A stretch of 64,000 bases of DNA from Paragonimus westermani (Eukaryota; Platyhelminthes; Trematoda; Plagiorchiida; Troglotrematidae), in contig QNGE01001313.1 of NCBI GenBank assembly GCA_008508345.1, positions 98,545 to 162,544 of the forward strand. The letters run 5' to 3'. The translations under genes were made by a program, and so were the position numbers. Below are positions 973 to 41,939 of this stretch, piece by piece. How positions within the stretch are numbered: the first letter of the stretch is position 1; the number at the start of each line of letters is the position of its first letter. Under the pieces are notes generated by a model. It was not told where the DNA came from, searched no databases, and saw nothing but the letters and a program-made list of their open reading frames with translations.

Positions 973-1058
973 GTGAGTCTGATGACACAAATCTGAGACA
1001 GTTGGCGTGCAGTCAGATCCGCACTCTCTACTTATTTTTAAAGACAAAATTGTTGTGA

Positions 1059-5862: not shown

Positions 5863-8800
5863 ACGCCAAATCATTCCCGAGATTGACTGCTTAAGCAAAA
5901 TTCCTCGGTCATTCCATGCTTGAATCCGCCACCACGACCGATGAACAGCGAAGATACATTACTGATAATCACACTAATCAACATGAATCTTATTCAAATG
6001 CTTTTCTATCAAAGGGGAAAGTTACCGGTTTGAATTAACGTTTAAATCAAGAACGAAACTGATCAACTGGAGTACGAATCGAGCCAAATGATAAGTGACA
6101 GAAGAAGAATTGCACCGGGCGAGTGCAAATCGATGCACTTGCCGAAGTCTGGTAGGTCAGGTAAGAGCACACATAGAAAGATTCAGATAAAGAGCAGAAA
6201 TTGGGTCAATTAAATTTTTGCACCAAATTTTTGTTTTTCGTAAAATAGTAGGGAACAATAAAATCAACATATCCTTTGACAACAAACCAGAGAAAAGAAC
6301 TGGCGAGTTACACTTCTAGTGGAGCGGTACACCAACTTTGATAAAGTGAGTGGCTGGTATGATGGGAGAGAAAATGAGTCTAGACGCGAGGCCTTATAGA
6401 CTTTGACAAAACTATTTCTGAAATGAGATGACTATGTCATAATGCAACCCAAAGTGATTTCTAGACACTGACCAAACCTGACACGGTAAATGTTTAGTAC
6501 GTACATGAAAAGGTGTGTGTACTGAAATCTTTTGCACTGATTCTCCATATTAGGCGAATAAAAAATATCAACATTTTTTGCCTTATTTCCGTGGGGCAAC
6601 AACTAACTTTTCACAAAAGATGTCAGCGCATAAGACTTGCAGGTTATCCGTTTAAACTTGGCTGTTCCTCTGTTGTACAACAGTTTTGCGTCTTGCGAAA
6701 CAATGAGTGGTGGTTCCTCTATAGGTTGGCATAAAGTGCCAGTACACTCCTTTAAAACGGCTGTAGCTTAGTCGTCACGTTTCCCGAATCTGAATGTTTA
6801 AAAGCAGCTAACTTCAAGGACTCATTTCGAGTGTTTGACTAATGCTTCGAGGACTCTGTAGTATAGAGTATAGTGTAGGTGAAACACCAGACTTTACGTA
6901 GAATGTCTGTTAGGTATATGCGTGAGCTGTGTTGCACACTCGAGGTAGATAGACTACGCAGTTGATAAAGCCTACTGGACTGAAATACGATTAGCACAAA
7001 CATTGAATTAGCATAAGGAAATAATGATTACCTATATATATCACCAAGGTAGACACCGATCGTCTTCCAGAACAGGGCTGGCGAAGTTTTGTTTGATGAC
7101 GTTAAGGAAGACGCTGACTGACGGTACTTCTTTACCATGAATACCGTCTTTGAGTGTTTGGGTTGGTTGTGAAGCGGAGACAGCTGTGGAGACGGATTAA
7201 TGTGTTCAAATTTAGTCACTTTTTTCAGGTGTCATATCACTTTCGTAGACAAATCCTTTGTTTGTGTACGATAGCGTCCAACTTCATGATGGAGGTTCCA
7301 GTTCAGATGCAGTCAAATTTTCACACCATGTTTCATATTCCTTTAACCTTTCCCGCTTACTATTTTGACTCGTGAATGTACAGCAGTTCGTTTTCAGTGC
7401 CATACCATGTTGCATAGCTGTGGGTGACGATAGTGATGTTGCTGTTCGTGACGTTTAGGATCAAGATGATGGAGCATTGACGCATTAAAAAGAAAAGCTA
7501 GTTTAGACGAAACGTACCGTCCATAACGTCACCTGATTTGGTGTCACCAGCTCAAGTACTAGTAAAACTGCCCATTACATACCAACAATAGCAGCGTTCA
7601 TAGCAAAACAAATACCTGACTTCTAGTGTTAGCAATATCACTGAGTACTGTACAACGGACTGTTCGCTGTTGAACGTGACCGGTGTGAGGTCAGGACATT
7701 TATGGTACAGTGCAATAAATGGTCTTAATAACCAACAGGAGTATTTGAAACTTCCAAACCTTCCTTCACAAGAAGTTGAGGTGTTATTTTCTGTACGTGG
7801 GGAAAATTTTCCGAATAGATTCAAAAGACTGTTTATCCTAACTGCAATATTTTCGCCGTGGTAAATCCCTCGGATATTCCAAACTGCAACTGATAACAAG
7901 CGCCCATAAACACTTCAGGCAGTTCTATATAAAATGCACCGTTCATTGGTGACTGATATATGTGAGATTTAATTTCAACACATCACTTCGTTTAGAGGAA
8001 AATTCTGTTGCATGGGCACTGTCCGTGTGTAAGCTTCATGTATACATATGTCGGAGCATAAATCAGGTAGCCGATGAACATTCATGATGAGAGTTCGTGC
8101 ATTCGGACTGACTCTTCTGCACACACTAGATTCGAGGTTCGTTTTGCTACAGCTGATCACCATTTTCACAATTGGGAACTAAACTACAACTACCGTGAGG
8201 TTGTAATGACTTTCATCATGCTAATAACCTCACACTGGCAAAATCGAGTAAACATAACTAAATGTTTAGTCACATTTTCTTGTGGGCAAAGCTTTCAGCG
8301 CGTGGTCAATTCAGTAAATGTTATAATAAGTTCCCCGTTGACTTTCACAGACAGCCCAAGATTAAAACTTCTCGCCAGTCATGAAATATAACAAGCGTAC
8401 TTGTTCAATGCAGCTTACTTATTTATGAATTTCCGAAATGAATGTCGTCTAATAAAATGTTCGAGATTAGTCCAAATTCACGCTGTTATCCGGCTCTCTT
8501 AAGCCTATGAACATCAGCTGTACGTTAAATGCCTCTGTATTGAATGGATGATTCACTTAATCACCAAAGCAGCTGAATAGACTAGACGGAATTTTCCTAC
8601 CCATACACTGTTTGTCCAGGTAACTTGGTAAAGATGAATGTGGCAGTGACCAACGTTCTTTCGAGGATGCTTTTGTTCGATTCAGTGATACTCCGTCAAC
8701 AGGATTGGACGTTCTGCCTATGTAAACATAACTGTTTTTGACAGCCAGATGATCTACAATTATGTTAACATTTGATTCCTTTTAATTCGCTCTGGTGCAC

Positions 8801-9540
8801 ATAGGCTGATGCTCTCTGGCTGATTTCTACAAATGCGGAACTATGTAACCTATGCAGATTACTGAACACTTGCGATCGAACTAGTGGATCCCCGTAAATG
8901 CGTTGTGATCCGGCAATTTATCCTTCAGCATTGAGACGATTGTAATGACTGGTTTGATTGCAGCAAATATCCAATTGATGAAGGTGCATATACGACGTGA
9001 AAACAATTCAGCCACCTTGTCCACTTTTCAGAGCAGCCGCCCAAAAGAGGTTCTTTCTAAAGTGCTGGGATCTGAACTGATCAGTTGGCACAGCTTTCAC
9101 ATGTTTGCTCACGAAGCCGTCAGGGTCTGCAAATTGTATTTCAAACTGTCCACACGTACGGATTCTTCATCAAACTGTGCATTATGAAGACGTGAACACG
9201 TTGGTCATACGTCGTACTTATGTATACTTATGTAAACCACTATATTCGTCCATAATGAGTTTAACCAACCTCATTGGTGTAAGCTGAATGTTGCTGTTTT
9301 GTTCAAGTGGATGTCAACAAGATTGCACGGGACTACCAAATCTGGAACGAAGGTTTAACACCAGGTCAAATTCAAAGAGATGCAGACAAGAGTCCATAAG
9401 AAGTCAATTGTGCGAACACCTGCTTTGTGTAATTCTCATTAGGCGTTTACAGCCACATAGGGTACACGCGATTTATATACGAAACAAATAGAAAAAGTCA
9501 AGTGGGTCATTAAAATCATAGACGTGGGTCGGATCAGAGT
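5863..9540. other. Non-coding stretch, no gene seen
   Basis: All frames are broken by frequent stops. The longest open frame is 115 codons (7552-7899, minus), has no motif I recognise and is within chance length. At 8874-8895 there is a short chance resemblance to a cloning-vector polylinker, discussed under rejected items. Confidence 0.5.
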
Positions 9541-9830
9541 CTACTTGTAGGGGTGGAAATGTTCATGTGTGTGGGTGTGGGTGTGACACTATCGCACGTG
9601 CCTGCTGTGAGAAATGCGTTCTTTGGTGTCACGTGGTTCACGCGTGCTTGGGTTTCAAGTGGCTGTGGCCTAATTGGCCAAGGGAGACTTAAAGTCTATA
9701 CGAAGTGTCTTTCGACACAGGCAACATCGTAGAGTCTGACGCCTATGGAGTGGGCTTCTAAATGATTCCAAATGTTCCATCCGGCTCACTTTGATGGCCG
9801 GTGTCAATTAAGAGGAAAACGATCGCACTG
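9541..9830. other. GC-richer island with a run of small perfect hairpins
   Basis: A (GTGGGT)-like simple repeat (about 9568-9584) precedes three consecutive short perfect stem-loops: TGGCC/GGCCA with loop TAATT (9666-9680), AGACT/AGTCT with loop TAA (9685-9697) and GTGTC/GACAC with loop TTTC (9705-9718). A fourth stem, CCGGC/GCCGG, spans 9781-9801. There is no long open frame on either strand. The base composition is visibly richer in G than the flanks. I do not recognise a known RNA family. It could be a structured RNA, an old repeat, or coincidence. Confidence 0.3.
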
Positions 9831-12800
9831 GGAATGAACGTCCTAGAACCATTGTGAAACCCTATGCTGAAACGAATATGAACCCATAGATTTTCGCACA
9901 TTTTGTTTACGTGCATATGCTAGACATTTTGTAACCAAACCAATCAAGCCAGTTATGTATGCAGCTGATTCTCGGAGCCGAACATAAGTGTACAGAATTG
10001 CGTATCATGAGTGGATTCTGGAAGAACGAAGTTTATGGTAAATGAACCAATCTGCATTTTATTGGAAAATTCAAAAGCAGTTAATTGGTACAACTGGAAC
10101 AAAGTTTGATTCGTTAGGACATTCATCTGCCGTAGTCTCAAAATAATGTGCCATCAGGTTATCATGATTTATAGGAGTAACTAGCAATTCATTTTGAATT
10201 CGAACCGTGAACTTGCAAGACGGTTTTCGAAGCTACTTTTCCGCAAAGGTGTGCACAAAGACGATCGGCCAACAATAACTTAGTGTTAGTAGGCTAGCAT
10301 GGTAAAGGAATTTGAACAAGAAAGTATGTGACTGTATGGCATTATCGAGATAGCTCACCTGGTAGACTACCATTACTTGGTAACAGACTTACTACTACCG
10401 GCTGCAGTTGCAGTACTCAAATGGCCAAGAGACACGTGCTTAGATGTATACCAGCTGCTTTTGCAAGGCAAACTGGTTGGTTTATGACGTGCCCCATGGC
10501 TGAAAGGTGACATTTTTTGAACGGTCCTTCGTCTACGTTCATTTTCCAGCAACTTTCATCTTACAAATTTGCTGTTAAATGTACTTCCAGTAGTGGTTTC
10601 GCCGCAATTGTGTACTAACAGGTGCTTCATTTGTAAAAAACCCCGTTTTCATATGTTTATCGTGTTCTATTTTAAGATTCTCATTCTCCTTTTTGTCACA
10701 CCATTCACAACTGAGTATTCAGTCCTTTTTCACGTTACACATACATTTCTGTGTACTGTCACTGTTTTACAAATATATGCTCACTAGGATAAGAAGAAAG
10801 CGTGTTCCACGAGATGCCATCATTCATTATCTTTCTATCTGCCGTCAAATATAGAACCAATATGAAAATATGCACCATGGTGCACGGCACTCACACTTGA
10901 GCAACTCGTTTCTATCACGTATGATCGACTGAAACTTGAGACACACAGCCTTGGCCGAATGATATTCATGAAACGATATCCTCTAAATTGCATATACCCA
11001 CTTTTCTGCTTGCCTTGATTATCTGTGAATGTGCATTTTTATCAGTAATGTTTTCTGTCGTGAGCTCAGCCTTCTTTCACAAACAATACTTACTGTAGAT
11101 GTTTGCACTCCTCTGAACAATTTTTCATAAGAAAATGGTGGGCACTGAAGTACACGTTTGGCCATTCTAGAACTTTAAAGGAAAACATGGGAGCGCAATG
11201 TAGCGTCTTTGTATAGGCCAGGCTGAAATTTTTGAAGCGCTTTTCACACTGAATTCTACGTGGTTTTTGCCGTATTAACGTTGATTGCTTTTGTGTTTTG
11301 CTTACATGGGTTCACTGTGAGCGAAACCACCAGCCTGCAAATCACAATAACCTGTCTCGGAATGTCAGCATTCCGCGTAATAAGTTAGCTCACCCATTTT
11401 TTCAATGCTGTGTCTAGCTAGTCACTGGAAAACCCACTTAGTCTGACATTTTTTCGCAGCGCACTTGGCATCCACCTTAACCGTACTTGGTGGACCTTCT
11501 TAATCTAATTTTTCATTTCGAAGCATAAGCTAAATCGACTTGTGGATCTGGGCTTAGGACGATTTGTTTGCTGACGTGTAAGAGCGTAGGTACTAACCTC
11601 ACTTTCTGCTATGTATCAAAATTACTTAAGCTATCAGTTCGAAATTAATTAATCAATTAATAGTTATAGATCCGGCGGAATCCAACGCTTTATAGCGTGG
11701 TGTAAACCTGAGTCGTCTAAGTTTGAATCATGTGCATATTATGGTTTTACAAGACCTGCCGGGTTCCCGATTCACCCAACTGGTTCCCACATGACTCGAT
11801 AAGTAAATCGGAATTAAGTGATAATCAGAGTGTAGATATCTTGCCTGGCTGATTTGAATTACTGACTTCAAACCCCAGTCAGATTCCATAACTAGTGTGA
11901 TGAGAAAAGTACAAGCAGACAGACGCTAAAAGTACAAACTATTGACGATGACGGGACCTAATCAACAGCTGTCAAAACACAAAATTTTTCGATGAGTACA
12001 GAAGACCTACTTTTTGTTTACATGCATAACACCACAGTAGTGTTACATTTACGCCGAGCTTGACTATAGTGATCAAGAAGAATTACTGGGTAATTTGGAA
12101 AGGACACGAAATTGTTGAAAGCGGTACGGTTAACTGATCCACTCCACTAACAGTCCTTAGGCACATGATTTGTATACAGTTGATATTGCTGAAATACACG
12201 AAAACGGAACACCACCATATAAAATCTGTATGATATGGTAATTCGTTGTTTAATCAATGTGCTACATCAAGCAGCTTAATATGTTTACCGGCTAGTCACC
12301 TGATGTTTGGCCGTTTTTTCCGCAGTTTGCTTTATAGCAAAAATACGCTTACCAACACAGCTACATATGGCAAACTGAACTCTAAAGGCTAAACGGAACC
12401 GACCCGTTTGGATACGAGTCATGTGCCTGCACCTATCCTTGAACTGCTGGTTTATGACGAACTTAATTCAGTTGTGGTTGGCAAACCTGTTTCGTTTTGG
12501 CGAATACAAACCTAAAATCGGACAATTGTTTTTTCGTTTCAGTTTGGTTTGTTATGTACTCTTTATAGTGAAATTACGTTCATTCTACATTAGGGATTCG
12601 TTTCTTAGAAAATCCTTGCATTGAATCTAGTTACAGTGGTGTTCTAGTGAACTTCAGTTCGAACAAGGGTTTCCTCTCAAACCACAGAACTGGTCAGTAG
12701 CTTTAGTCTAAACCGTTAAAAGCCTAACTTTGTAAGTAGGTTTCACTTGTTCCTATGTAACTATTTACCAAGTTGTTCAATCAACCTGAATGAAGGAGAA

Positions 12801-18510: not shown

Positions 18511-21500
18511 CGTAGCGATAAACCAATGATCCCAAACGTTCAAAACAAGATTGGATCGTAATGTCACGGTACTGTTGAACAAATTATCAATGTGAATATT
18601 TAGACAATCTCAACAGTTTCGATCGACAGATCGTTTCTGGGGGATGGGTTAGAATTTTCTGCTGAACGGGCCAAATATGAATTATAATAATATAATAAGG
18701 TATTAATGCCCAAAAGAGCTCTTCTGAGCAGTCAACAGGCTCAAAACACTGGGGACGAGCCTAGCTTCAAACAATGGGGATGCACGCACCACTCAAATAA
18801 AGTACAATGGTTGACAGCTGGCTATTCGCACAACCCTCAAATTGTCGTGATAAAACAAAACCCTCTAGGTCGAGTTCAGAAATAGGGGAGGTTGAATGAA
18901 GAAGTGTAAATGTTTAGGGGAATGGGGTCGGGTCGGACTTTCATATGATTTCAGTTCAAAAGGTTGATACACCGACTGAATGCAAATTTTTCGGAAGCCG
19001 ACGTTCCAGGTCTCCAGCTCCTTCAATCTTCTTCTCCAGATTTTCCAGCCCATCGTTGAATTATGCTTCGTTTCCTTAACCTATTTAAAGTTAAGTAATA
19101 TTGCAGTAATGTCGCAACGAGAAACATTCATTTACATATAACATTGAACCTAGGACGTCACTGTGGTAACGGTTGCCACTGATTAGTGGACCATTTCGTG
19201 CTATGATGCCCTGCAATGTTTTTCGTATTTTTCCCTATTCAGTTTCAACATCCAAATAAGTGTTCATGCCTCATTACTGAGTGGTTATATGAGTAGTGCG
19301 ACCGTTATTCCTCAATACACTAACACGTACCAGTATCATGAACTACCTGTTGTATACCATTTTTACTATTTTTCTTCCCGGTAAAAATCTCACCTCCAGA
19401 ATTCCCCTATATTTTCCGAGAGATAAACGTTTCATTTTCGTGCAATCCTATCAGTTTTCTAGTCAATACTGACCGGATCCAAAGGCCTTACCTACATACC
19501 ACCTGGTCCTATTCCTCTGCATCTACACTTGGTATTTGGTGTATGATAAGCACCATAAGTGGCGAAGCGCAAGTCACTTGTTACGATGGTTATGTGTAGG
19601 AGTTGTTCTTTCTAGCATTGGTCAATATGATAGTCCAGTCCGAAATGGTATTCGCTAGCCGTGTTAAGAACTTATCCTGTATGCCGGTAACAACTTGTCT
19701 ACATTGCGCGAACATTCAAAATCTCCTGTCACGTTTCCTGTCAGCAAGTGATATTGTTACCGCCAAATTTTTCCAAACTATCCTACAAAGACCGACCTAC
19801 TAGTACGAATATCAGCACCTAAATTTCCAGTGCAGCTGGGTCTGCTACTCCTTTGGCACAAGTCACCTCGTCGGTTATCAGTTGTCCAGTGTTGGTGCCA
19901 AGCTTCAAAGATGGTTTACCTTGATTTTATTTCTTGTGTATGTTCTCTTTTTCTTGCCACCGTCAAGCCGGTTCAATTTGAAGAACAGTCCAGCAGCATA
20001 TGGAAAGAACTCGCGAAATGATTCCGAAATGGTTCCAGAAAGTCCAGTTTGAGTGCTAGTGACCCACAGCTGAATGGCACTAACCACCAAATCAAACTGG
20101 AGAAATCATTCCAAACTACCTACATAATTCACTACGCTTACTACAGGGCTGCTACAGTTTCACTGTTAACAAGAGTTTCGCCAATCTCTATAAACTACGT
20201 CAGAGTGAGCAGAAATAGTGAATATAAGCTCAGATGGTCAACTCTCCCCAAGCCACTTGAAGCTCGGGTATGGATGACTCTATTCGCATCGAACAACATC
20301 TAACTTTCAGTAGACAAGTGTTGCATCTAAACATTCATTCACATTTCCTTGTTCTTAATAAAAAAGAATTGAGCTAGGTGTGTTATTTTTAATGACGTGC
20401 ACGAGCGGTCCTATGTTTCAATAATAATTCTCATACATCGTTTGAAGTTATAGGCGCCTGGCGGAAGTGATTGGAAATCGCTGTTTGCCTCATTGACTAA
20501 TTACAAAATGCTAGGTTACAAATTAAGCATCAATCGGCATTGATGCCAGATTTCGCGACCTCACGGATATTTTAGGCTGCCGTTTTCGAAAAGAAGCAAC
20601 CAACTTGGGTTTCTTCGATGTTAGAGTTCTTCGGTTACACACACTTACTACGGTTTGGAGGCGAACTCCGGCCACGCTTCCAGTAGGCAACCGTGAGGAC
20701 CTATGTACTAATGGCTTCAAATTGGGCATGACAGAATAAATAAATATGAACTTTCAAACGCATTTGCTTGTGAATAATAGCGAGTTTGCCCGTTCTTCAT
20801 GTTAAGCGAGAACTGTTACCTGTTAATTTCGGTAGAAAACCCCACAAGCAAGATTCATATTCTGGTTGAAATTACAGGACTTTAATGGCTGCATCGGTTA
20901 CTGTGAAAACTGAATCCAGGAAAGATTACCATTGATTCTCTTATCAACCAATTTGTTCGTGGATATATTCATGTTGACTAGTTCTAGTAGATTAATGGGT
21001 AGTAACACTAACTATAATCTATGAAATCTAGCTCGAGGTGATTAAAGCCTCCTATGATTCAAACATGAGAGTAACCCAAACATTGCGTTCTTCACAGGCT
21101 ATCTATTCTCTGTTAGTTTCTGTACACATAGAATGCGATCCGCTTATCACACTGAGTACTGAAATAAGATTTAGGGTGACTATGCTTACTAGTTAGGCTG
21201 ATTCACCAATATCTAGAAATGCTCAGCACGAATACGATATAGCTCACATAGAGAGCCACAACACCTCATTTACCGACTTTCCTCTCACGATGAAACACAA
21301 TGCTCACGAGAGCGAGTAGTTTACCATCTCGCAATTCCAGTGTATCACTTGTGATGAACAAACAAGAACCAAGCATCCATGGAAACTGGTATCTATAGTT
21401 AGGTCTCTCATCTCGTTAGATTACGTGTGACACTGGTCACATGTTTTGGTCGTCTGGAATTAGCATAGCCTTGAAGCACTCACTTAAACTATGGAAGAAT

Positions 21501-21856
21501 CGAGTGTGAACTATCGGGTACCCAAAAAACAGATAAACGGCCTCACCGTGGAAATAACCATATCAAGTTTTCGAGAGCTTTCTGAGTGGTGGTTACAACC
21601 TTGAATGAATGAAAAATTCACTTCGTCAGTTATATAATTATTGCAATTCAATGTGAGGAACTGCTTGAAAATCGTGGTGTCCAAGACATAAACTAGCTTG
21701 GTATCCACATAAATTACCACTGCTCGAAAACAGACACCTTAGATGAGATGGTTTTTCCGTGTACTAGATGGTTAAATTTTCATCAGTGTGTATGCTGGGG
21801 AAGACACCAGCTTCCCGAAATTACTGTGTGGTAAGTACTAACAGTACACTTGCGGG
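18511..21856. other. Non-coding stretch, no gene seen
   Basis: 18560-18850 is possibly a 3' remnant of the upstream LINE, but I have no homology to show it. Elsewhere the frames are short and motif-free (84 codons or fewer). Confidence 0.45.
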
Positions 21857-22296
21857 TGACCTTCATAGTCGGTGCGTTGATGTGCCACTTCGTCCTTCAA
21901 CCTAAATCTCTGGTACCCCACCTACGCGCCTGAACGCTCACACGCCTACATCCAGCCTACGCGCATCACTTTAATGTTTGGTCCTTAATTTGCTCCATCT
22001 TTCTACTTGTTCATCTGAAAAGTCACAAACCCTTCAAATATGATCTTGTTTGTGGCCGAGTCGTTTTCGGATTGAGTGACATAAAGCAGCTCTGTCCAGG
22101 GGATAGTCTTTTATGTGTTCATAAGTTAGTCTCGGGTGGTTGGGTTGGCCGGGAAGTTAAGAACCAGTCGTGCATACTCCGCAGTCCGTTGTTCATTACT
22201 GTTGAACGTCGTTCCGTTATACGCCGTTTCACTAACCCTTATTCCGTTATATATTTACGCGCTCATAGGTCGTTGATCCAGTTACAACGGTGCTGC
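21857..22296 (+). repeat. Unclassified dispersed repeat, copy 1
   Basis: This stretch aligns with 31916-32352 in the same orientation over its whole length, with indels. Shared blocks include GTGACCTTCATAG at the left end, CTACGCGCCT...CGCTCAC..GCCTACATCC, TTCGGATTGAGTGACAT, GGTGGTTGGG-TGGCCGGGAAG, AGTCGTGCAT and CGTTCCGTTATNCG. The open frame at 22072-22305 falls inside the repeat and is not conserved as a frame in the other copy, so it is probably not coding. No terminal inverted repeats, poly-A tail or RT motifs were seen, so the class is unknown. Similarity may start somewhat further left, near 21826. Confidence 0.75.
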
Positions 22297-22639
22297 ATTC
22301 AGTGAACTGAAGTCATGCACACAGAAAAAAACTTTAATTGGGTATGAGGGAACTGTGTCAAAATATGTTACTTCAATCCCTCAAGATTCTTATTTCTCAT
22401 CTCCACATGACAAATCGGCAACTGCGGGCGCAAACACCTGAAAAAGTTTTGGAATGGGAAAACTATGGGCAAATACAGCATAAAGCAGACAAAAGACTGG
22501 AATTACACGTTTTATGCCCGAACAGATTTCGCTGCATCTCTACGGGTGTTCATTGCAGACGCGCTAAAATGTACAAAATTCCGAACAACAAGGCAATCCC
22601 GAAAGGTTAAATTTCCAAACCAATTCGGTTGCTACCAAG

Positions 22640-22951
22640 GCAGCATCCGTGTCATAAACAGTGCTTTTTGTACGCACTAACTGGGGTCTCGGCATACCGT
22701 AGCAAACGTTTCTTTCGACTCGGAAACAGAGCACGGAATGATCGTGGTGAGTCAGTCACATGTTGCGCCATCAAGTGACGCTTTGCAGTCGATGAAGCTG
22801 GTTCCTTCCGGGTGTTTGCTGTCAACTTGTCTGATTGTGTGACCGTTTGTTGAACCCACTTAGGTAAGTGTTCGGCCACCCTGGTTCCAAGCTGGCGCTC
22901 AGTCCAACCAACACAGGGTGCTCGGTATTCACATTTGTATTCATAGATTAC
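22640..22951 (-). repeat. Left arm of a perfect 312-bp inverted repeat
   Basis: The reverse complement of this segment equals 24039-24350 base for base in my line-by-line comparison, with no mismatch or gap. It covers the GIY-YIG-like C-terminal part of the Penelope-like element, and identity stops abruptly at both ends. Spacer length is 1087 bp. The left arm is continuous with the longer PLE copy, so it is the probable source and the right arm the duplicate. Confidence 0.95.
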
Positions 22952-23715
22952 CTTTGATTTGGCGAACCAAAACGTCGGTTGCTTAACCTGGGGTTGTGGG
23001 ATTTCGGAGCGTTATGCACACGATCACTGAGTTTACGGTAAAGAACTTACGGGCGACAGGTAACCTTAAGCGATGTTCAACTATTCGACACACATTTTCT
23101 CCCCTGAACGGCAGTTGTAAGACTGATTCCTTTTCGTGGGACTGTGGTTTGATAATTATTTCGTACATTGTTCATGTTGAATTTTCTTACAAATCCCCTC
23201 GGAGAGCCGTTGTCTAATCAGGCGTGGTCTACTTGACGGAGTTCATAATCCGGTGTGTTAATAGCACATAGCAGTCTGGCCCGGTCAAACAGTGTTTGTG
23301 CCAATCCCTTGTATGCTACCGGAACAAAGCTGTCAAAAAGTAGGCACTGACCGGTCCATGTATTCTTTCGAAATGCGACACGTTGAATGGATCCATCCAT
23401 TCTCCTAATCATGTTGGCATCCACAATCGGTAGTCAGCCGCTGGTCTTACTTTCTAAGGTGTGCCAAAAGTTTGGATGTAAACAGTTCATTTGGTCTAGC
23501 ATATCTTTTGCCTGCGTCTGATCATTCGTCGCTACGAGTATGCCACATACATGTTTTGCAGAGGACCAAACTATCCAATTTGCTCGCCATTTGCTTACCC
23601 AGTTTAGCCACAAGGATATCTGCCAAACTACTGATTAGTAATGCAATTTCTATGCTCAGCCGTGGTGTTGGTGGATTCCAGCGTGAATTTTTTAAGAAAT
23701 CCTGCCGGGGCAGTC
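22640..23715 (-). mobile_element. Penelope-like element, 5'-truncated, minus strand
   Basis: Read on the minus strand with frameshifts. (1) About 23620-23450 is an RT palm segment (SSLADILVAKLGKQM) running toward motif C. The YVDD-like catalytic box is expected near 23550-23535; I read Tyr-Val followed by a small deletion that removes the aspartates. (2) At 23424-23218 is the thumb, with the Penelope signature VAFRKNTWTGQ...FDSFVP and then a helix F-DRARLLC. (3) At about 23130-22983 is the block LQLPFRGENVCRIVEHRL seen before the endonuclease. (4) At 22951-22652 is the GIY-YIG-like end, with CVGWTERQLGTRVAEHLPKW standing for the usual Y-(I/V)-G-T-T...R...H region. The copy is dead: it is frameshifted, lacks the catalytic box, and is truncated upstream where a SINE begins at 23720. 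Confidence 0.85.
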
Positions 23716-23719
23716 AATC

Positions 23720-23935
23720 CATATGACACAGTGGGACGGGTGGTTAACAGAGTCCAAATGTGATATTTCTGAGCTCCTAGTGTGGTTTCGTAACTCAGCT
23801 GGTACAGCGTTTGCCACGTTGAGGCATGTTGTGTCTGTCGCTGGTTCTAATCCAGCCGAAGCCCTGACTTACCACAATTGGGTCTCGTCTAAAACGAAGA
23901 TATATGTTAAAACTATACCAAGTGGACTGCCCATC
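23720..23935 (+). mobile_element. tRNA-derived SINE, family 1, plus-strand copy
   Basis: Internal pol III promoter: box A-like TAACTCAGCTGG (23791-23802) and a near-consensus box B GGTTCTAATCC (23843-23853), with about 52 nt between their starts. It is homologous over about 190 bp to the minus-strand copy near 5.7 kb. A roughly 70-nt leader precedes box A, a common layout for tRNA-related SINEs with a 5' extension. It abuts the truncated end of the Penelope-like element at its left, and its right end lies about 100 bp before the right arm of the inverted repeat. The open frame at 23723-23953 is incidental. Confidence 0.78.
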
Positions 23936-24038
23936 GCGACTCCATCAATTTGACGATAAGCCTTCACTTGAAAGTTAAAGCTTACGATACATATACACAG
24001 CTAAATTAGATATTTTAATTCACTTATCGGGATAGAAC

Positions 24039-24350
24039 GTAATCTATGAATACAAATGTGAATACCGAGCACCCTGTGTTGGTTGGACTGAGCGCCAGCT
24101 TGGAACCAGGGTGGCCGAACACTTACCTAAGTGGGTTCAACAAACGGTCACACAATCAGACAAGTTGACAGCAAACACCCGGAAGGAACCAGCTTCATCG
24201 ACTGCAAAGCGTCACTTGATGGCGCAACATGTGACTGACTCACCACGATCATTCCGTGCTCTGTTTCCGAGTCGAAAGAAACGTTTGCTACGGTATGCCG
24301 AGACCCCAGTTAGTGCGTACAAAAAGCACTGTTTATGACACGGATGCTGC
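24039..24350 (+). mobile_element. Penelope-like element 3' fragment, right arm of the inverted repeat
   Basis: This is an exact inverted copy of 22640-22951. The frame is open for about 98 codons from the first bases of the arm (VIYEYKCEYRAPCVGWTERQ...) to a TGA at 24336-24338, the same stop as in the left arm, so the duplication happened after that stop arose. It encodes only the GIY-YIG-like end of a PLE protein. No RT sequence precedes it on this strand. Whether either arm is expressed is unknown. A transcript across both could fold into a 312-bp duplex. Confidence 0.9.
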
Positions 24351-24968
24351 TTTGAGAACCGTTTTCTCGTAGGCTATTTCGAGTTGCACAGTCCTGGAGA
24401 AGATAATTATGGGCTTTGGTGAACAAGGTTACCTTCACCACAGACAAGTGATGAAGACATACACATTTCTTGAGAGAGTGTGACGTTGTGGTTAGCACCA
24501 CGATGTCGACAACAAAATAGACGACATATGATCGAGCAGGGATGCAGTAGGATAGAGATGAACGACCACTACAAGGTCATCCATAGCTGGTTGTTTCACC
24601 ACTTCACTGTTCAGGAAATTATTTTTCAACTGCCTTCTAACAAATGGATTCAGATGAGAGTCAGTTACGGACGATCTTGCGAAGCCAACATCATTCGACC
24701 ATTAATTCCTGAGGTTCAGACAATGGTGTTCACGTTAACTGTTCCATTGTTAAACTTCTTAAAGCCATAATTTCCTCGTTAGCCACCAAACTCATGATTC
24801 TCTGTATTTGATCGAATTCTCATCAACCTAAATTTTGGCCTGATCGAGTGACATTTCGCATATAAATGGTAGTCAAAATTATCAAGCAACTCTTGATCAG
24901 AAACTGGTGGCAATATCTCCAAAAGAGAGGTTACTGGAAGGACAGCGTTCGTGCTTTAGGATGAACAG
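24351..24968. other. Non-coding stretch, no gene seen
   Basis: Open frames of 63 codons (24310-24501, minus) and 96 codons (24480-24770, plus) have no recognisable motif. Confidence 0.4.
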
Positions 24969-31170: not shown

Positions 31171-31915
31171 GTTCTTGTAACTGATTATATTATTTATGTC
31201 AATGGTACCACGTTTCCAGCGTCTTGATTTGGTTTTGATATTTGGTGTCGTTGGTCATCCGTGCGTCACTCAACGTTCGTCGGAAGAAAGTACAATCAGA
31301 ATTGCGGCGAAACTTTCATGGGGCAATCGTATTGAAGTTGGAGTAATTACCTCCTCATCAGGCACGGCTAAGTGGTGAGTGAGTGGAAGATACACGATTA
31401 CGAGGCCAATGACCAGGTTCCTCGGGTAGGCGTAATTGTTTCTGAAATCACGTGGGCGTCTGCTTTACTTAAATGTCATCATGGAAAACCGGTCTAGTAC
31501 TGCTTTCTTCGGATACGCCATTAATGTTGCAGCAGTAGACATGAGGAAAAGGAAAGCCTTTTTTGAAATACTATTTCTACCAAGCAGAAAAATTTGTAAC
31601 AGATTAATATGAATTCTAGAACAAGGATTAGCGACAATTCGCGGACACTAAAATGAGTATGTTAATGAGTTGATCGCGTTACGCAAACGCCCAGTCATAT
31701 TCTGTGTTATTAGTGCTCAACCGGATCATCGATTTATTCTAATGTGTAATTTACTTGGCCTATGGGATTTCTAATTACCTTAGAGAACTTGGGGTTTCCA
31801 GTGTACTCGGTGCATATCAATGTTTGCATTTTGTTTCAACTTCCACTGTAAAAACTTCATGGTACCTGTCTGGTAAGTCGCCAGTACCCCCGAAAACATT
31901 GTGCGACAAAGACGA
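31171..31915. other. Non-coding stretch, no gene seen
   Basis: A 60-codon plus-strand frame (31196-31378) ends directly at a donor-like GTGAGT (31373-31378). It has no recognisable domain. Nothing else stands out. Confidence 0.4.
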
Positions 31916-32352
31916 GTGACCTTCATAGGTGGCACGGCCATGCGCCACTTCGTTCTCCAACCCTTTTGACAAATCTCTGGCATCCCACCTACGCGCCTCC
32001 ACGCTCACATGCCTACATCCGGCCTACGTGCATCACTGTGCTATTCGGCTCATCATTTGGTCCGCCTCTAATTTGGTCTTCCTGTTAGTCACATACCCTT
32101 TACGATCTGGCTTGTGACCGTGTTGTCTTCGGATTGAGTGACATGAAAGAACTCTGTCCGAAGGCCAGTTTTCTCCCTGTGTTCATGCGTTAGCCCTGGG
32201 TGGTTGGGATGGCCGGGAAGTCTCGAACTAGTCGTGCATATTCCGTAGTCCGTTGTTTGTTACCGTTGACTATCGTTCCGTTATGCGTCGTCTCACTGAC
32301 CGTTATTCTTAGGTGCCCTAGGACAAGCGAACCAGTTACAACAGTACCACTA
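31916..32352 (+). repeat. Unclassified dispersed repeat, copy 2
   Basis: This is the second copy of the repeat at 21857-22296, in the same orientation and about 10 kb away. The two copies differ by many substitutions and several indels, so neither is recent. Overlapping minus- and plus-strand frames here (60-68 codons) are not shared with copy 1, and I treat them as incidental. Confidence 0.75.
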
Positions 32353-32764: not shown

Positions 32765-33062
32765 GGACAGTCAATGTGTCTCCCTTCGAAACGATCAGAC
32801 AATCAGAGCATTACCCACAAACGAATATGGTTGAGCGCTCACATCTGGTGAGTCAGTTGTGACCAATGTGAGATCAATGGCACAGTGGTCAACACGGTTG
32901 TCTCATGAAAGCGTGGCCAGATTTCTAGTTCCGGAAGTAGCAAGGATACGCACTACTGACGAGCTGCTCCAACAAGAATAAAACCTGAATCTGGTGTTTG
33001 TTTCCAAAAGAGGACAAGTGGTAGGTGCGATCAGATATGAGTGGTGTTCAACTTATAGGAGA
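32765..33062 (+). mobile_element. Hammerhead SINE-like element, family 2, decayed copy
   Basis: It aligns with 55139-55448 over about 300 bp. It has a perfect box A match, TGGCACAGTGG (32878-32888), and a degenerate box B around 32920-32932. It then has a decayed hammerhead region (32950-32997) and a tail sharing AAAGAGG, CGATCA and TGTTCAACTT with the other copy. About 110 bp upstream of box A are also shared, so the element has a 5' extension. In layout (pol III promoter then hammerhead ribozyme) it matches the Sm-alpha type of schistosome SINE. That is a similarity of architecture; I have not compared it with a database sequence. Confidence 0.75.
32950..32997 (+). ncRNA. Degenerate hammerhead ribozyme
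   Basis: The stem I 5' strand GCACTA (32950-32955) is kept. The core reads CTGACGA (32956-32962), so U7 is replaced by C. Stem II no longer pairs cleanly, and the cleavage triplet has become ATC. The stem I 3' strand reads TGGTGT in place of TAGTGC. It is recognisable only by alignment to the copy at 55324-55368 and is almost certainly inactive. Confidence 0.6.
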
Positions 33063-36000
33063 AGATGAAATATTTCATTTGCATTTCAGAAATTTAGAAA
33101 GATTCTCATAGGCAGAAATTAACAGATCATGAGAAGGAACAGAATGATTGTTACTGGTAAAGCTCCAGATATCATCCATGTCGGGCAGCTACAAGTCTGC
33201 CATGTCACATTTCAATTCCCTGAAGCTCCAAAGAATGGATTCAGGTTCGGTTGATGATTAGCTCTTACTGACTCATAACCGTTCTTAAGGACCAGTAATG
33301 CTCCTTAACTTCAGGCTCTCAAGTATCTGAGCGTAAATAGATACGAGGTTTCTCATACAGTCAAAAATTCCTTGTTGTAGTCTGGAACAACACAGTTTAC
33401 GAATGAAAGATGTGAACCACCTGCCCGGACGACTCTTACAGACATTGCTTCGGATAACGACACTCCGAAAAGGAAGCAGAATACGATGGAGCTGAAAACA
33501 CCCTTCCACATAGATACCCCTTCGATGTTCACAAGTGAAACTGGAGGGACTCCGTCTACTACGGTTTAGAAGCGTTCAGAAAACGGACCAACGTAATATA
33601 CCAATGAGACCGTATCTGTGCTTAAACGAAATCAATATTACACGAGCGTGCTAAATGGATAGTAGACATTCTCAAAATATTTTGCTAAATGTTTGCTTCC
33701 CATTGTATAGAAGAATGGTTTTGAGCAGAACGAGCAGATCAGTAGTGAGCACGACAAGTTGTATTGTATAGATTTCGATTACTTCGTAAGGAACTGCGTT
33801 CTAACATGGTTCCATTTTCGGCCAGAATTTGTCTTAATTGATCACTGTTATTTGTGCTACCGTACTTAACTTTTCCCCGTAAAAAATCCGTTTTGATTTT
33901 TAAGGACCTTTCATCAATCAAACTGACAGCGTAGCGCCGGGAAGTCCAGTATTCTTAACTCAACTGTATGTTTCCAAGAGCGATTTAAACAAAGCTGTCC
34001 GAAGCATTTAGCCGGTGTCATCATTGTGTGGATGACATTTTAATATTTTTCACTGCCGTTTATTCTGTTACACCTTGAAATTCTCATCATCCGCTGATGA
34101 AACTCTGTTTCTCAAAAAGAGAGACAAAATTACCATCTGCTCTTTCTGGACAGTTTATTCACGTGACTGTGTGACAGTCAGCCGAATCTTTTGACGTTTA
34201 TAATTCTGGTCACTTTCAGTGACTGCGCACAAACGAGAACCAGCCTGAACACTGTTTTACAAAGCCGGCATGCTTGCACTGATGACTGCTCATAGAATAG
34301 ACAGGAAATGTAAAGGAAGGTCATATTTGCCAACAGATGTCTGCAACAGTTTACTGGTATTTACAGAACGCAAACTTCGACCAGGAATAGTATATCTACA
34401 GTTCCAATTTGGCAGGTGATTTTAAAACTTCCTTTCAAAGATAACACGCCCTACTCTACAAAATGTAAACCTTCAGTCTCTCCCGACTCATACCTGCCCA
34501 GCAGTTTAGCTACAGTCAATATTAGCATCTCACCTAATCGTATCTTGTTAAACCTCTCTGTCTGTCTCACGATGTATCATTGAATTATATTGGCAGGATA
34601 GATAGATTAACACTAAAAAGGATGGTTAAACTCGGTTCAGGTGATTAATACGTATAAAGACGTTGTGGAAGGCAGCAACATGGAGTGGGAACTCAAACAC
34701 GACTAACTCACGACTCGCTTACTGCAAAGTGCACCATGGCAACAGATCATGCGGTTGCCCGGTAACCTCTCCTGACGTATCGGTACGTAATCGAAACCCA
34801 ACATTTTCCCAGAGGACGCTAGCCAATAACCGCCGTTCTGCCCCGTGTGTGTATGGACTGTTAACTTAGTCAGTATGTCTGCTCTGGAACTGGAAACTCT
34901 CACTAATCTTGTGTGCGAATCAAGATGGCTGACAGTTTACCTTGCTGTTGTCCGCAAACTATATATGCTTTTAGGTTTTTTGTTCTCAGCTGAAGTGAAT
35001 GAACAAAATATTAGCACCTCGGGAAACGCCTCTACCTCATTAATTGTTAGTGAACTACACTTAGGAGTCTCGCTGATTCGATTAACCTCTTACTAATTTT
35101 CGCTGACATCCGAACATTGACTTTTCCCTATTCCAGTTGTCACTTTTCTATTATGGCCTTTTTTGAGAGATATAAGATGATGGTGGGAAGTAATTTAGTC
35201 ATTTCGGACAGCAAAAGTTAGTAACTCATGTTGTGTTGATTGCTGGATACCCCGAACTTACTGGAAAATTTTTTATTCATACGTTACTATTGTCGACTAA
35301 GAACACGTGCCTCAATCTTTTCGAATGCTTGGAGATTCTACTGTTCACCCATAAGTGGTTCATCTAAATTCAGCTACCTTTTGTACCGCTTATACTAGCA
35401 ATGCGTGAATAGGTCGCCGGACAATGTATCTGTTTATACATTGCTTGAACGTGTAAATGGCTGAGTTAGACAGTGAACCTAAATCTATGCAGAATATTTT
35501 TCCGCTTAAGGGTCAACTGAAATGTTTTGTTTCTTCAATGGCCACCGACAAAATAAATCAGTGTTCATGCAGGCGCGTTCAAATTTGAAGACAGTGGAAT
35601 GGTTGACGCGTTTACTCAATTTGCAGATCTACCAGATGTGCCACGAATAAAGGTTTCATCCAATTTGCCTAACGTCCAGTTTCATAACACATGAACTATC
35701 GGTATGTACTTCGTTCTTACTTGGAATTGGTTCACCAGTTTCTGATAGCGACAACAGAGCCCCGCACTTCATAAAACGTATCCGGAGTATTATTTTAATT
35801 GATGCACTGAAAATATGGGCACATTACAGCGGCATTCTCACTCATGAGTTTAAAAGTGTTCGTCAAACCAATGCCGATCGCGCCTTCTAAGTGGTCCACT
35901 GCATGCTGAACAACTCAGTAATGACCGCCATCAATGAAACGCTGAGTCGCTGAGTTTATAGGGATTTTGGCAATTGGTTGCAAATTACGTCGTCAAAAGT

Positions 36001-39000
36001 GGTTCCCAAGCTAACCGGACCTATGGATACACTTCACAGTTCTGCTAGTTCTTCAGGGTTGGAGAAGAATGATCGAAAGTATATGTTTGATTGTGTGTGC
36101 TCATTTGCTGTATCACAGTGGTCATATGGAGAATGACGGGAATATCACTTATACTCTATCTACGTGAACATGTTAGTGTATCAAATACATTTGTGTTATT
36201 CCACGCCGATTGTACCACGATGTTGGAGATCGATGGAACACACAAGTAATAGTTATTTTATAACAACCGTGTGTTTCGATGTTCACAATATGATAGTGAG
36301 CTGTTCTTCAAATCGGGAACACAAGATGCAAGCCAATGGCTAATCAGTGATTCGATGGTGCGAGATCTGAGTGATAGTAGACGAACACTGATTCAAAAGC
36401 GGCACGCTGAAAAGTCTTTGGCAATAGAAGCACTGAAACCAGATTAATTCTGTCTTCTCAATTCGTTGCGCAAATACATTCGCATCAACGGAATGATGGA
36501 TGAGGAAAAATAATTGTACAAGGCTTTGTCCAACCGTGAATTCAATATTAATAAGTGTGACACCAATGATCATTGTAACTCATTTACTTACGTAATCACT
36601 GAATTAAACAGCATAATCTGAATCCAAATGTAACGTTGTTTTTAAACGAATTGCGCGCTGCAAATCCACTTCAGTTTTTGCAGTTTTACTGCTAATGAAT
36701 ACAGATTTCTTTCACCTCTACAGAAGTAGAGGGAATGAGTGAACAAAATTTACATGCAAACTTGGTGTCGCACGGCTAAAACATGCATAAACGCAATGTC
36801 CTGAAAGCATTCAATGTTAGTGACAACAACGGTTCTACCAGCAAACAAGAGTAAAATAATCGATCTACTGCCATGGGAAATTTAATCTATTTCAACTGCT
36901 GATGTTTAATTGCACTGATCACAAGACCTGTGAAAAATGGTGAAGTTGTTGCGTATGATGAATATTCCAACAGCCTGTCGTTTACTAGTATCAGCTGTGT
37001 ATGCGAACCAAGGAATATGCGCGAGGAAACCATTGTGCACGTACAGAAAAAGTATTGCAGTAATTCAGCTTAGAACATAATTTTGAATACTTTCAAGTGA
37101 AACGTAACACACAATCGAACAAAGAACGGTAAAGACAGATTGCATATCAGATAATTCTAGGAATCGAGTAATTCCACTTTTAGTTTGTTGACTTGGTGTT
37201 CGATATATACGCTTCGGTTCAAGATTAAATGAAACACTACCATAGTGACAAAAGACGTGTCTAGCATTGCTCAATATTCATGGTATTTGTAAGGCAGATC
37301 ACAAAGTCGACCTCCGCAAAGCCATGGAAGCGTTTTTACCCTCCCCAAACACCTTCGGAGCTTGAGTATAAGACTCTTTGAACCGGTCATGTGACCGTCA
37401 ACCGATGAACCCACAAACATCAAGAGGCAGAGAGCTTTTGGTGAGGATTATACTTCACAGGTAGGTCAGTTAACTGAGATAAGCACAAAAATGTTGGCGG
37501 TTGCCCGGTGGAAGCTTTGGAGTTGTTGGGAAAAACTTAATCCATAAGGCTCCGAAATCTTCATGCACACATTCATGATGTTCTTCACAAGCGGCTGAGC
37601 AGAAATTATACAGTAATCGTCATATACTTATTGGTGTACCTAAATTAAACAAAATTCTCCGAAGACATTATGGAGCCGAAAATTTAGCGAACAGAATGGT
37701 CCTCAATAAATTCTCGTCTTAGGCCGGTAAAAGTAAGCTGGTAAAACTAAGCAAAGACAAGGAACCCACTTCAAGAAGTGAAGCTACTGACAGAGCTGCT
37801 GAATGGACGCAAAGCACGACTTCTTTGTAGGGTCACAATGCTAAACGATAGTGCAGTTGAGCGGGGATTAGTTTGTTGCGTGGGTTGAGTTTGTGTTCAG
37901 CGATGATAATCTGAAGGTGACGTACTTTGCTGTAGACGTACTGTTTCAGTCGATTTTTCGTGAAGTTGTGGTTTGGATGTGCTAGCTGAGCTGGAATTGC
38001 CACTTCGTGTCACAGTAAATCACATGTATCAAGAGGAATTAGTAAAAGTTTCACTTTGTCCCAGAGTGAAGCCATACGCGGCGTTTTCCATGGACACTTT
38101 TTGGCTAAATTCTGGTAGTGTGATCTACAGAAGTTGATCCAAAAGCGTCGTCAAACAAAGAGGAGAGTATAACGTAAAATATCGTCCACCAACTTAGATA
38201 TCATGATCGGTTTGGAGTTGAATATAACAACAAAACTTAAGATGTAAAATGTGCGACTGATCCCATCATTTATTCGGCCTTCTGTCAGCGCGGAGCCATT
38301 TCCTATGGTCTTATGTCAAATATATAAATGGTATTTGTATATACTGTCAATCGTGTTACGTCAAACAGTACTGTTTCCTGAAGCTGGCGTCTGCCTTCGT
38401 TACATGTTACCGCTAGTAAACTTCCGACGATGTATATTACCAATTGGGGTAGCACGTGATTTTCTCAGTTTCCCTTCAAATGTATCATGTTTACATACTC
38501 CCAATACTTTGTTAATCGAACAGCTTGCAGAGCGATATCTGAGAGTGTCAGCACATAACTTTAGCAGTTCAGCTATTGGCAATACCAGGTTCCCATGCAG
38601 CCATGATGACATCTCCTGGAAACCTAAGTGTGTCACCAGCTGGGTCCGATACGCCGAACACACAATCCACATAACTGTGATAATAACTCGTTGTTTTTGA
38701 CTTTGTCTAACTTATCATTCTTGATCACACTCACAAGGATGTTTTCTAACGCTAAGTCTGACAATGGGACCACAGCAACATTCTCAACCTAATGACAAAG
38801 CCCATCGAGCTGTTGAAACGGAACATTTCTGGGGCAGAATGACAATCATTTCTTTGGTTCAGCCACCAGAAGACGGACAATCATCGAACGAATGTTAATG
38901 CGGTCATGAGGAACATTCTTCGTTCAAACTGAGCGGACCGTGGCAAACAGCAGTGACATATCGAAAGGCAATATTTTCATGTCAGCTACACGGAGTCCCA

Positions 39001-41939
39001 AGGTGTAGTCAGTGATCTGTAATGTGATGTTCAAAATGTTGTTTGTGGTCTGTTTCCTAGCTGCTTCAAGAATTACAACAGTCCACTGCACAGCAGCATG
39101 ATAGGGCAGTTTACACATGTCAAATGTCCGACGAAGTCATAGTATCCGTGTATGTCTGGGTGTTTGTGCTTGTCGGCTTAGTAAGTGCTCTCTCTCTGGA
39201 TTAGCGAAGTAACTATCTTAAGTTCACTAGCCGGTCAGTTTAACACATTTTCCCAGCATTAATTTTGTGTTGGTGTTGCTAATTTGAACTGTGATGTGTC
39301 GTGTTTGAAGAAGACTTACACTAAATGACAACAGTAACAAAGCTAATTGTGATATATTACGTAGCCTCAACCAGTGTCTGTGTGCATTTTCTGTAAGCAA
39401 GTGACGAAGCAAAGCACATACGTTAACAGCTCTGTCCTCAAAGTCCTCAAAGTTAGCTTTGAATGCTTTTATGATCGCCGAAATGCATTGATGTACATAA
39501 CTGAAATCCTCTTTTGGGCTGTCGAACAACTACAATGATCGTTAACTTCAGTCTTCTTGTCTTGCCTATTTGTATCTTGTCTAGTGTGTGCGCTGTTTGA
39601 CCTGAAACCGTGTTTCAAGTGTTAGTACGTTTAATGAATGCATACTTTGACATAATAACTTAAGTGGCCACTCATCCCGTGAGATCCTCGAACGGCGTGT
39701 TTTATTTACACATCCGATTGAATTGGGAAACAGCTGAAAGCTGAGAGCGGTCGTCATGCTGTAGCACTAGCTGGTCCTGAGTCGTCAGTCATGTTCAGTG
39801 AGGCCGGAAAGTGCCTTCACAGGGTGTATCTCCTGAGCATATTTCGTTGTCTGTCACCTAAAATAAACGTTACATATATCAGCTTATAGTAGGCAATGAC
39901 CAGTCACAACTTGATGTGTATTAGCCTTCAGACCACCTTGGTACTTGTGAGGGGAATTTTTATTACGCAGGGATCTGATTTCTGCCTATTGAAATTGATG
40001 TGTCCGTGAGCTGAAGTGACCTTGTATATATTCTTGCGTATGAATTATTTCTACGCATTCTACTTAATACGGGTAAAGCTACTTGTCGTACCGACAACTG
40101 GAAAGCTAATTGTGCCTGTTCAATTTCCGAACAACGGCTTCATCCATTAACTAAATCTTTACTTTGTGCAAATCAAACTGACATTGTTGAGTTCAAAATA
40201 AGCCACTTCAGACCTCAGCGAGTAAAGTACGCATCAAACGTGCTATATCACAATAGTATGATGGAGCTGGTTGTTAGCATAAATTCAGAAATTATCTTTG
40301 AATAAAATTATGAACCTTGTTCTGACTGGTAGTTTGTATTACCGCCGCTAAGGTTACGTTGGCTACCTAAACTAACGGATACTGTGCACTGTAATTGTGG
40401 GCGGTATGGTGGACGTGTTTTAGGCCATTAAATAAGCACTTATTTATGGACAACTCAGAGGGGGTATCGTAAACAAAAACACAATTGCTTTAAAATAAGA
40501 GAACTCCAGCCGTACTGTTGAGAAAGCTCACCTGACTTAGGATGTCGTTAACTAGATTGAAGGAAACGTTCCGATTTGGTTAGATTTCGCATTCGAGTCG
40601 AGTTAGTGAAGTGCAACAATGACAGCATGACAACTGCAGGCCACCAGAGAATATTGCATCTCAGAGAGGATTGACGTAGCCTGAACAGGTTGAATTTCTC
40701 AAATATTTTTCAATCCTATTGAATTCCCTGAAACGAACTAATTGTAGCAAGAATTGCGGATAACTTATTATCCACTTAACATTCCAATATCCCATGACGT
40801 CCTGATGTAATCTAACAGAATAATCTTGTATAATTTGTGGGCTGATATCATGATGATGCCTACGATCCCATCAATAGGAAACTGGTGAATATTCACGTGC
40901 GTCACGTGTCGTCAAAGTGAAACTAGGAAGTACAATGAACACACTCATCATCCAGATAAGATATAGCCTTAACTACGACGATTTTGGAAATCGCAGAACA
41001 ACGTTCACCACATCATGGTTTTTCTCTACCTTTTGGCCAATCATCAACCATTGTGAAACACCCGTCATTTGGCACGACCATGGCTTCACTTTTGCCCTGA
41101 AAACCAGTGATCAAAACCAGTTTCAGCGGATTCACGCCTCTTTCTAACTAATGAATTCTGAATAGGATTTTCTACTCATTTCAAATTTCATTCATCGACA
41201 CCTTCAATGGTTACATGCTCAAGCTGAACGGCGATGCTATTTCTGTGCTCCTGTACTGATCAATTCCACGGTGGTTGTAAGTGGGCTCTACAAAGCACGA
41301 GATTGTGAACTTGCTGGCATCAATATTTGTCTTATCAATTTGGTTATTAGTCGTCCACACACACGCACAAATACACATGAATCTCTGCGTCGAGTTGCCA
41401 CACTCAAAAGGTGCCTTAGCGTAGCATTTTCTGCCGGTTCAATCCGATCGTTTCTCCACAAACACCGCTTTCCAGGGGTCCAAATTCCTCTTTATGAAAC
41501 TTGTGGCTCAACTTTTGTTAGTGAACACCTGAGGGTTTTGTCCCAGTCTGTGGCGCTCGTTATATTTTTCTCCAGTTATCTTAACGCTCTTCCTCTACGC
41601 ATGGACGCGGTTCATTCAAAACAGGTGTCGCTGAGCGCTTATATCTTGTAGGTTGTTCATATTTAATAGGAAGCCATGACAACGTGGTCAACCTGAAGAA
41701 TATATTAGCGTTCAAATTCCGGTGATGGGTTCTGAGGGTAATGACACCAGAGTCTAGTGCTCATTTCATTCATTAGTGTGTGGTGTTCAATTAATATCGA
41801 CGGAAATTTGCCAGCCCAATCGGCCAATCAGCTCGCCTACACATTTCTTCCCAGTCTGAACCAATCAGAACAATAGTCGTTTAAGAATGGAAAAGTTAAC
41901 TGAGAAACCAGAAAACATACACAGGATTCAGCGTACTCA
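33063..41939. other. Non-coding stretch, no supported gene
   Basis: The longest frames are 149 codons (38251-38700, plus), 126 (41271-41651, plus) and 100 (39227-39529, minus). None carries a family motif I recognise. The last is helical and Leu-rich with a patch FEDRAVNVCALLRHLL, suggestive but unassigned. These lengths are within chance. No repeat structure was detected. Confidence 0.45.

What the first reader, a model, noticed from the sequence alone, without database searches (positions are those of the whole stretch)
22640..24350. Perfect 312-bp inverted repeat made of Penelope-like element ends
Arms 22640-22951 and 24039-24350 are exact reverse complements over 312 bp with sharp ends and a 1087-bp spacer. 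All other repeat pairs in the window are strongly diverged. The left arm belongs to a dead, frameshifted PLE copy, and the right arm carries the same terminating TGA, so the duplication is younger than the decay. Possible causes are a recent inverted duplication by template switching, gene conversion keeping the arms identical, or an assembly error. If transcribed through, the RNA would form a 312-bp perfect duplex and could act as a hairpin-siRNA source against related PLEs.
Basis: partly seen in the sequence, partly recalled or inferred. Interest (0 to 1): 0.78.

Follow-up and report, generated by a model that had tools for sequence, protein, structure and literature searches.

The report
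Self-homogenised inverted retrotransposon arms
A perfect 312-base mirror repeat in what is probably a flatworm genome comes from the usual back-to-back way a jumping gene inserts itself, and its two halves seem to have been made identical again long afterwards, one copied over the other.

Summary
The inverted repeat is real: 22640-22951 and 24039-24350 are exact reverse complements; with edge mismatches allowed it spans 319 nt. The spacer is the body of one decayed Penelope-like element (PLE) on the minus strand. The right arm is an inverted piece of the same element, joined head-to-head to its truncated body. This architecture is ordinary for PLEs: 18 of 36 fetched sibling loci show it and none is tail-to-tail. 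The identity is the unusual part. Both arms share 32 private substitutions and a frameshifting deletion. No inter-locus comparison of the fetched copies exceeds 86.8%, and an insert in the spacer has diverged target-site duplications. In this pair and three sibling pairs, the remaining differences lie at the arm edges around a clean tract; here that edge signal rests on two mismatches. Best reading: an old head-to-head PLE insertion whose arms were recently homogenised, most likely by arm-to-arm gene conversion. A young insertion from a dead master is unlikely. Assembly collapse of nearly identical arms is not excluded, because no reads were available. The hairpin-siRNA idea is untested.

The parts
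22480..24038 (-). Decayed, 5'-truncated PLE copy: reverse transcriptase core to endonuclease region and 3' end (tailless)
22640..22951 (-). Left arm: endonuclease-coding 3' part of the PLE ORF, perfect tract
24039..24350 (+). Right arm: inverted copy of the same part, joined head-to-head to the PLE body; its outer end is missing
22952..22954 (.). Inner edge beyond the perfect tract: left arm has a private base where the right arm (24036-24038) has the family base
22636..22639 (.). Outer edge beyond the perfect tract: right arm (24351-24354) has a private base where the left has the family base
22480..22635 (-). PLE 3' part beyond the arm, present on the left only
23630..23896 (.). Private insert in the spacer, absent from three uninterrupted siblings (L013, L037, L039); SINE-like by eye, not classified
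   Evidence: part of it matches 5720-5860 at 70%
23897..23914 (-). Target-site duplication of that insert, first copy
23612..23629 (-). Target-site duplication of that insert, second copy, diverged from the first

Best explanation
An old Penelope-like retrotransposon inserted here head-to-head: a 5'-truncated copy on the minus strand joined to a short inverted copy of its own 3' region, both 3' ends outward, as reverse transcription primed from both target strands or a template jump could give. Both copies decayed. Later, arm-to-arm gene conversion (or an equivalent templated repair between inverted arms) copied one arm over the other across about 312 bp, leaving only the edges different. The same process homogenised all or the middle of the arms at several sibling loci. 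Shown: architecture, its recurrence, shared decay, edge-restricted differences at sibling loci. Inferred: the conversion event itself, its timing and the insertion biochemistry.
For: Architecture: 18 of 36 siblings plus this locus head-to-head, 0 tail-to-tail. Arms sisters in 12 of 14 same-locus pairs on the tree. Here 32 of 306 sites changed in both arms, 1 in each arm alone, body 84 of 655; tips 0.003/0.004, stem 0.102, against a median tip of 0.114 for 23 single-copy siblings. Shared changes by codon position 8:10:14. Best other copy 85% for the arm (40 of 299 candidates scored), 82% over a short stretch and 77-80% over longer ones for the body (40 of 152 scored). Highest of 1249 inter-locus comparisons 86.8%. 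Diverged target-site duplications of the nested insert. Edge-restricted differences: L034 9/65 and 9/42 around a clean 116; L041 6/87 and 5/41 around a clean 128; L042 1/8 and 3/22 around a clean 348. Edge clustering reached by 0.0002, 0.0004, 0.0004 and none of 5000 shuffles for this locus, L042, L041, L034; not clustered in L009, L019, L043.
Against: No reads: 100% could partly be an assembler's collapse of arms that are about 98-99% identical. Here the edge signal rests on two mismatches, each followed by only 2-3 matching bases, and local alignment can add such ends by chance. L010 shows no significant edge signal (p 0.10-0.14) and L012 has one mismatch (p 0.02) and an N right before its right arm. 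L026, not homogenised, gives edge p 0.006, and a 63-bp piece of L024 0.014; p values are uncorrected over 18 rows. At L041 the edges also carry 10 shared changes besides 11 differences. Two same-locus pairs (L024, L035) are not sisters. No target-site duplication of the whole insertion was found.
Confidence: 0.72

Rival explanations
1. Young insertion from a dead master: a decayed PLE RNA was mobilised in trans recently, so both arms were born with the shared decay and are identical because young.
For: Arms and body all carry decay, and arms are identical.
Against: No close relative: best 85% for the arm and 82% or less for the body (capped candidate lists); all 1249 inter-locus comparisons at most 86.8%. 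The nested insert has diverged duplications. It does not explain diverged edges around clean tracts at L034, L041, L042.
Confidence: 0.1
2. Assembly collapse or mis-filling: the arms are real but differ in the genome, and the assembler wrote one sequence twice.
For: The assembly has single-N joins, one right at the arm of L012. Collapse would also spare differences next to unique flanks.
Against: The assembly keeps arms at 73-96% apart at many loci. Arms as diverged as the L034 or L041 edges should not collapse in their middle (inference). The window has no N.
Confidence: 0.12
3. Recent inverted duplication: the right arm is a new copy of the left arm, placed there by template switching or repair.
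For: The right arm stops at the ORF end rather than the element end. No target-site duplication.
Against: The arm begins exactly where the PLE body is cut off, the family's usual head-to-head junction. At the inner edge the right arm has the family base where the left has a private one, which a fresh copy would not have, though this rests on a few bases.
Confidence: 0.06

Closest known systems
Penelope-like elements with inverted pseudo-LTRs (Adineta vaga Pen families, PMC3846280; passages and Discussion read)
   Same: Endonuclease-bearing PLE, 5'-truncated, head-to-head as the most frequently observed inverted arrangement, optional ~31-bp tail on one inverted end
   Different: Here the right arm lacks its outer end, no target-site duplication was found, and the arms look homogenised after decay; in the parts I read, gene conversion is mentioned for the bdelloid genome, not for PLE arms
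Gene conversion between the LTRs of plant LTR retrotransposons (PMC7251063; abstract and outline read)
   Same: Terminal repeats of one element look younger than they should, and similarity rises with repeat length (here Spearman 0.58, p 0.04, 13 pairs)
   Different: Direct repeats of LTR elements in plants; here inverted arms of a PLE
Arm-to-arm gene conversion in sex-chromosome palindromes (PMC3723533, PMC8981503; search listing with abstract starts only)
   Same: Inverted arms kept alike by conversion
   Different: Here arms of a few hundred bp made by a retrotransposon; no GC bias seen in the shared changes (15 W>S, 12 S>W of 32)

Membership tests
Penelope-like element (endonuclease-bearing) | PLE-type reverse transcriptase core | tested here: met
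   Pieces joined with X find 23 proteins, best E 1.3e-71, PF00078 listed for 22 of 23; invariant RQIDG..M.SPL block. The single pieces alone matched no relevant Pfam family.
Penelope-like element (endonuclease-bearing) | C-terminal GIY-YIG-type endonuclease region | tested here: met
   Aligned with PLE proteins through that region; a near-invariant Tyr and Cys are replaced in both arms. No Pfam hit for the arm itself; the GIY-YIG name for this region is taken from the PLE papers read.
Penelope-like element (endonuclease-bearing) | tandem or inverted partial copies, tail on one end | tested here: met
   Head-to-head here. Of 15 head-to-head siblings with both ends complete, 13 have the tail on one end, 2 on neither, 0 on both. 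At this locus the left end is tailless and the right outer end is missing, so the tail itself cannot be judged.
Penelope-like element (endonuclease-bearing) | target-site duplication | tested here: not met
   No shared word of 8 or more between 22400-22491 and 24350-24469. Expected if the right outer end was lost; some published PLE insertions lack one (PMC3846280), so not a strict requirement.
Penelope-like element (endonuclease-bearing) | hammerhead ribozyme motif | tested here: inconclusive
   No Rfam match at gathering score in the window; the 5' region is truncated here.
gene conversion between repeat arms of one element | arms more alike than element age allows, sharing derived decay | tested here: met
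gene conversion between repeat arms of one element | bounded tract with older divergence outside it | tested here: inconclusive
   Clear at siblings L034, L041, L042; at this locus only two edge mismatches.
gene conversion between repeat arms of one element | identity confirmed in reads or a second haplotype | not testable with these tools
   No reads; the flank search that could show a second haplotype did not complete.
hairpin-siRNA source locus | transcription through both arms and 21-23 nt RNAs | not testable with these tools
   No RNA data held.

The most novel reading that the evidence does not exclude
Head-to-head PLE insertions are self-renewing hairpin loci: gene conversion keeps long perfect arms of PLE endonuclease sequence, and the host gains because read-through transcripts of such loci feed the siRNA pathway against live PLEs, so that arm identity is partly maintained by selection.
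Probability: 0.05. Interest if true: 0.75.

Novelty: new member of a known kind. Interest (0 to 1): 0.42.

Why it matters
If right, arm divergence cannot date PLE insertions, as has been argued for LTRs, and PLE inverted arms become natural reporters of ectopic gene conversion: each pair starts identical, decays at the family rate, and records conversion tracts. Arm pairs of one assembly already range from 73% to 99.6% identity. It also warns against reading a perfect inverted repeat as a recent duplication or as a working hairpin.

Tried and rejected
Young dead-master insertion, assembly collapse and recent duplication are treated as rivals. A near-identical copy elsewhere was looked for with the arm and the body and not found among the scored candidates. 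A target-site duplication of the insertion was sought and not found. The search with the short arm frame found nothing, and the search with the ORF at 75-1058 named no organism. GC-biased conversion: no sign in 32 shared changes. Younger pairs may simply keep longer arms, so this is weak. The sibling sample was picked by similarity to this locus' arm. L012 was merged with an unrelated piece (77%; body 0.356); its arm alone gives 28 shared and 1 private change of 231 sites and 99.6%. Pairs with fewer than 100 comparable sites were dropped, and segments under 110 bases. Of three loci fetched later (L048-L050), one (L049) is head-to-head with 91-nt arms at 86% and a tail on one end, L050 has no inverted partner, and L048 has two opposite pieces without overlap; they are not in the counts.

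Full report
WHAT IS THERE. The two arms are exact reverse complements over 312 bp, 22640-22951 and 24039-24350, and the next base mismatches on both sides. With one mismatch allowed at each edge the block is 319 nt. The repeat finder reports no other inverted repeat of 60 nt or more; a gap-tolerant self-BLAST adds six other pairs, 66-82% identical.

THE SPACER AND ARMS ARE ONE PLE. On the minus strand the spacer and left arm read as a broken Penelope-like element: reverse transcriptase core from about 24036, then the region leading to the endonuclease, which ends in the left arm. The genome is therefore probably that of a flatworm, perhaps a fluke (inference); the assembly has 823 Mb in 9701 contigs. 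The right arm is the same 3' part in the opposite direction and starts where the PLE body is cut off; the PLE proteins match nothing on the minus strand between 24355 and 26500 at E 0.05.

THE ARCHITECTURE IS ORDINARY FOR PLEs. I fetched 36 sibling loci, those of the 40 scored matches to the arm that are not this locus. Against an unedited sibling copy as ruler, 18 of the 36 have opposite copies with the 3' parts outward within 3.5 kb, none has them inward, and three have other inversions; three of the 18 (L014, L029, L031) rest on short partners of 33-81 bases. The family end lies at ruler position about 2462 or, with a tail of about 27 bp, 2489. Of the 15 head-to-head siblings whose two ends both reach 2430 or more, 13 carry the tail on one end, 2 on neither and none on both. 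Head-to-head as the most frequently observed inverted arrangement, and an optional tail on one inverted end, are described for Adineta PLEs (PMC3846280; passages and Discussion read). An Anolis PLE protein cleaves and extends both DNA strands and starts reverse transcription at two internal sites, the stretch between which is the tail (PMC11167929; main text read). At this locus the left end is tailless (22480) and the right arm stops about 155 bp short of the element end, so its outer end is missing.

WHY 100% IS STRANGE. Both arms carry the same 22-bp frameshifting deletion, a replaced near-invariant Tyr and Cys, and other changes not shared by most siblings. Counting substitutions against the sibling majority (at least 70%), 32 of 306 sites are changed in both arms, one in each arm alone, and the body has 84 of 655. 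The shared changes fall 8:10:14 on codon positions 1:2:3, as expected in a dead copy. On the tree of 51 segments the two arms have tips of 0.003 and 0.004 and a stem of 0.102; 23 single-copy siblings have tips of median 0.114, range 0.081-0.164. At that rate two arms decaying apart since insertion should differ at about 70 of 312 sites (inference). The element does not look like a fresh copy of a dead master: the nearest other copy is 85% for the arm, and for the body 82% over 357 bases or 77-80% over longer stretches (only 40 of 299 and 40 of 152 candidates were scored). The highest of 1249 inter-locus comparisons among fetched segments is 86.8%. An insert of about 270 bp in the spacer is absent from three uninterrupted siblings, and its two target-site duplications differ by several changes in 18 bases, judged by eye.

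CONVERSION TRACTS. Same-locus arm pairs range from 73% to 99.6%. In L024, L026, L021 and L043 changes are mostly private to one arm; L009, L019 and L044 are mixed; in this locus, L042, L012, L034, L010 and L041 they are mostly shared. Where the more alike pairs still differ, the differences tend to lie at the edges: L034 has 9 in the first 65 and 9 in the last 42 positions around a clean 116; L041 6 of 87 and 5 of 41 around a clean 128; L042 1 of 8 and 3 of 22 around a clean 348. Within the clean tracts both arms share 17 of 110, 10 of 127 and 51 of 345 changed sites, and here 33 of 311; outside them L041 has 10 shared changes and 11 differences, L034 7 and 12, L042 3 and 8 (majority at least 60%). 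With the differences shuffled, edge clustering as strong is reached by 0.0002, 0.0004, 0.0004 and none of 5000 shuffles for this locus, L042, L041 and L034. L009, L019, L043, L035, L036, L029 and L044 are not clustered, nor are L010 (0.14, 0.10) and L021 (0.06). L012 has one mismatch (0.02), L026 is clustered (0.006) without a long clean tract, and of two pieces of L024 one gives 0.014 and one 0.27 (18 rows, uncorrected). Local alignment can add chance matches at its ends. At this locus only two to three bases follow each mismatch, though the right arm's inner edge has the family base (30 of 35 rows) where the left has a private one.

LIMITS. No reads, no second haplotype and no relatives were at hand. 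The assembly has single-N joins, one directly before the right arm of L012. Collapse of nearly identical arms remains possible; of arms as diverged as the edges of L034 or L041 it seems unlikely (inference).

KNOWN OR NEW. Head-to-head PLE insertions are known. Gene conversion between repeats of one element is known for LTRs (PMC7251063; abstract and outline) and between palindrome arms (PMC3723533, PMC8981503; search listing). A full-text search for Penelope-like, gene conversion and inverted repeat gave 9 papers; of these I read parts of one (PMC3846280), which does not describe conversion between PLE arms in those parts, and did not open the other eight. The library lacks most subscription journals. 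I therefore file it as a new member of a known kind, not as a new kind.

HAIRPIN IDEA. Nothing here tests transcription. Ago2-enriched sense and antisense siRNAs from Sj-penelope1 in Schistosoma japonicum (PMC3409120; passages) show only that worms of this phylum can make such RNAs.

Noticed in passing
window 8725-9859 (-), 19718-20192 (+), 33560-34008 (+), 38184-39217 (-): Further, more diverged PLE fragments matched by the PLE proteins at E 0.05; several PLE remnants lie in the window besides the one studied.
   Followed up: no
window 21853-22244 and 31913-32308: Direct repeat pair, 76% identical over about 400 bp, ending about 240 bp left of the PLE end; nature unknown.
   Followed up: no
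window 54904-55007 and 55139-55241: A second, short inverted pair, 82% identical; the right part also matches 32765-33013.
   Followed up: no
window 75-1058 (+): 327-aa ORF with an alpha-macroglobulin receptor-binding domain match, E 1.5e-10; no homologue at E 1e-5 in the protein search.
   Followed up: partly
G000:C9083:7051-7713 and G000:C1635:27745-28407: Two PLE body copies with the same score, identity and query range, possibly duplicate haplotype contigs.
   Followed up: no
L012:3664: A single N exactly before the right arm of a 99.6% arm pair: probably an assembly join at a repeat edge.
   Followed up: partly
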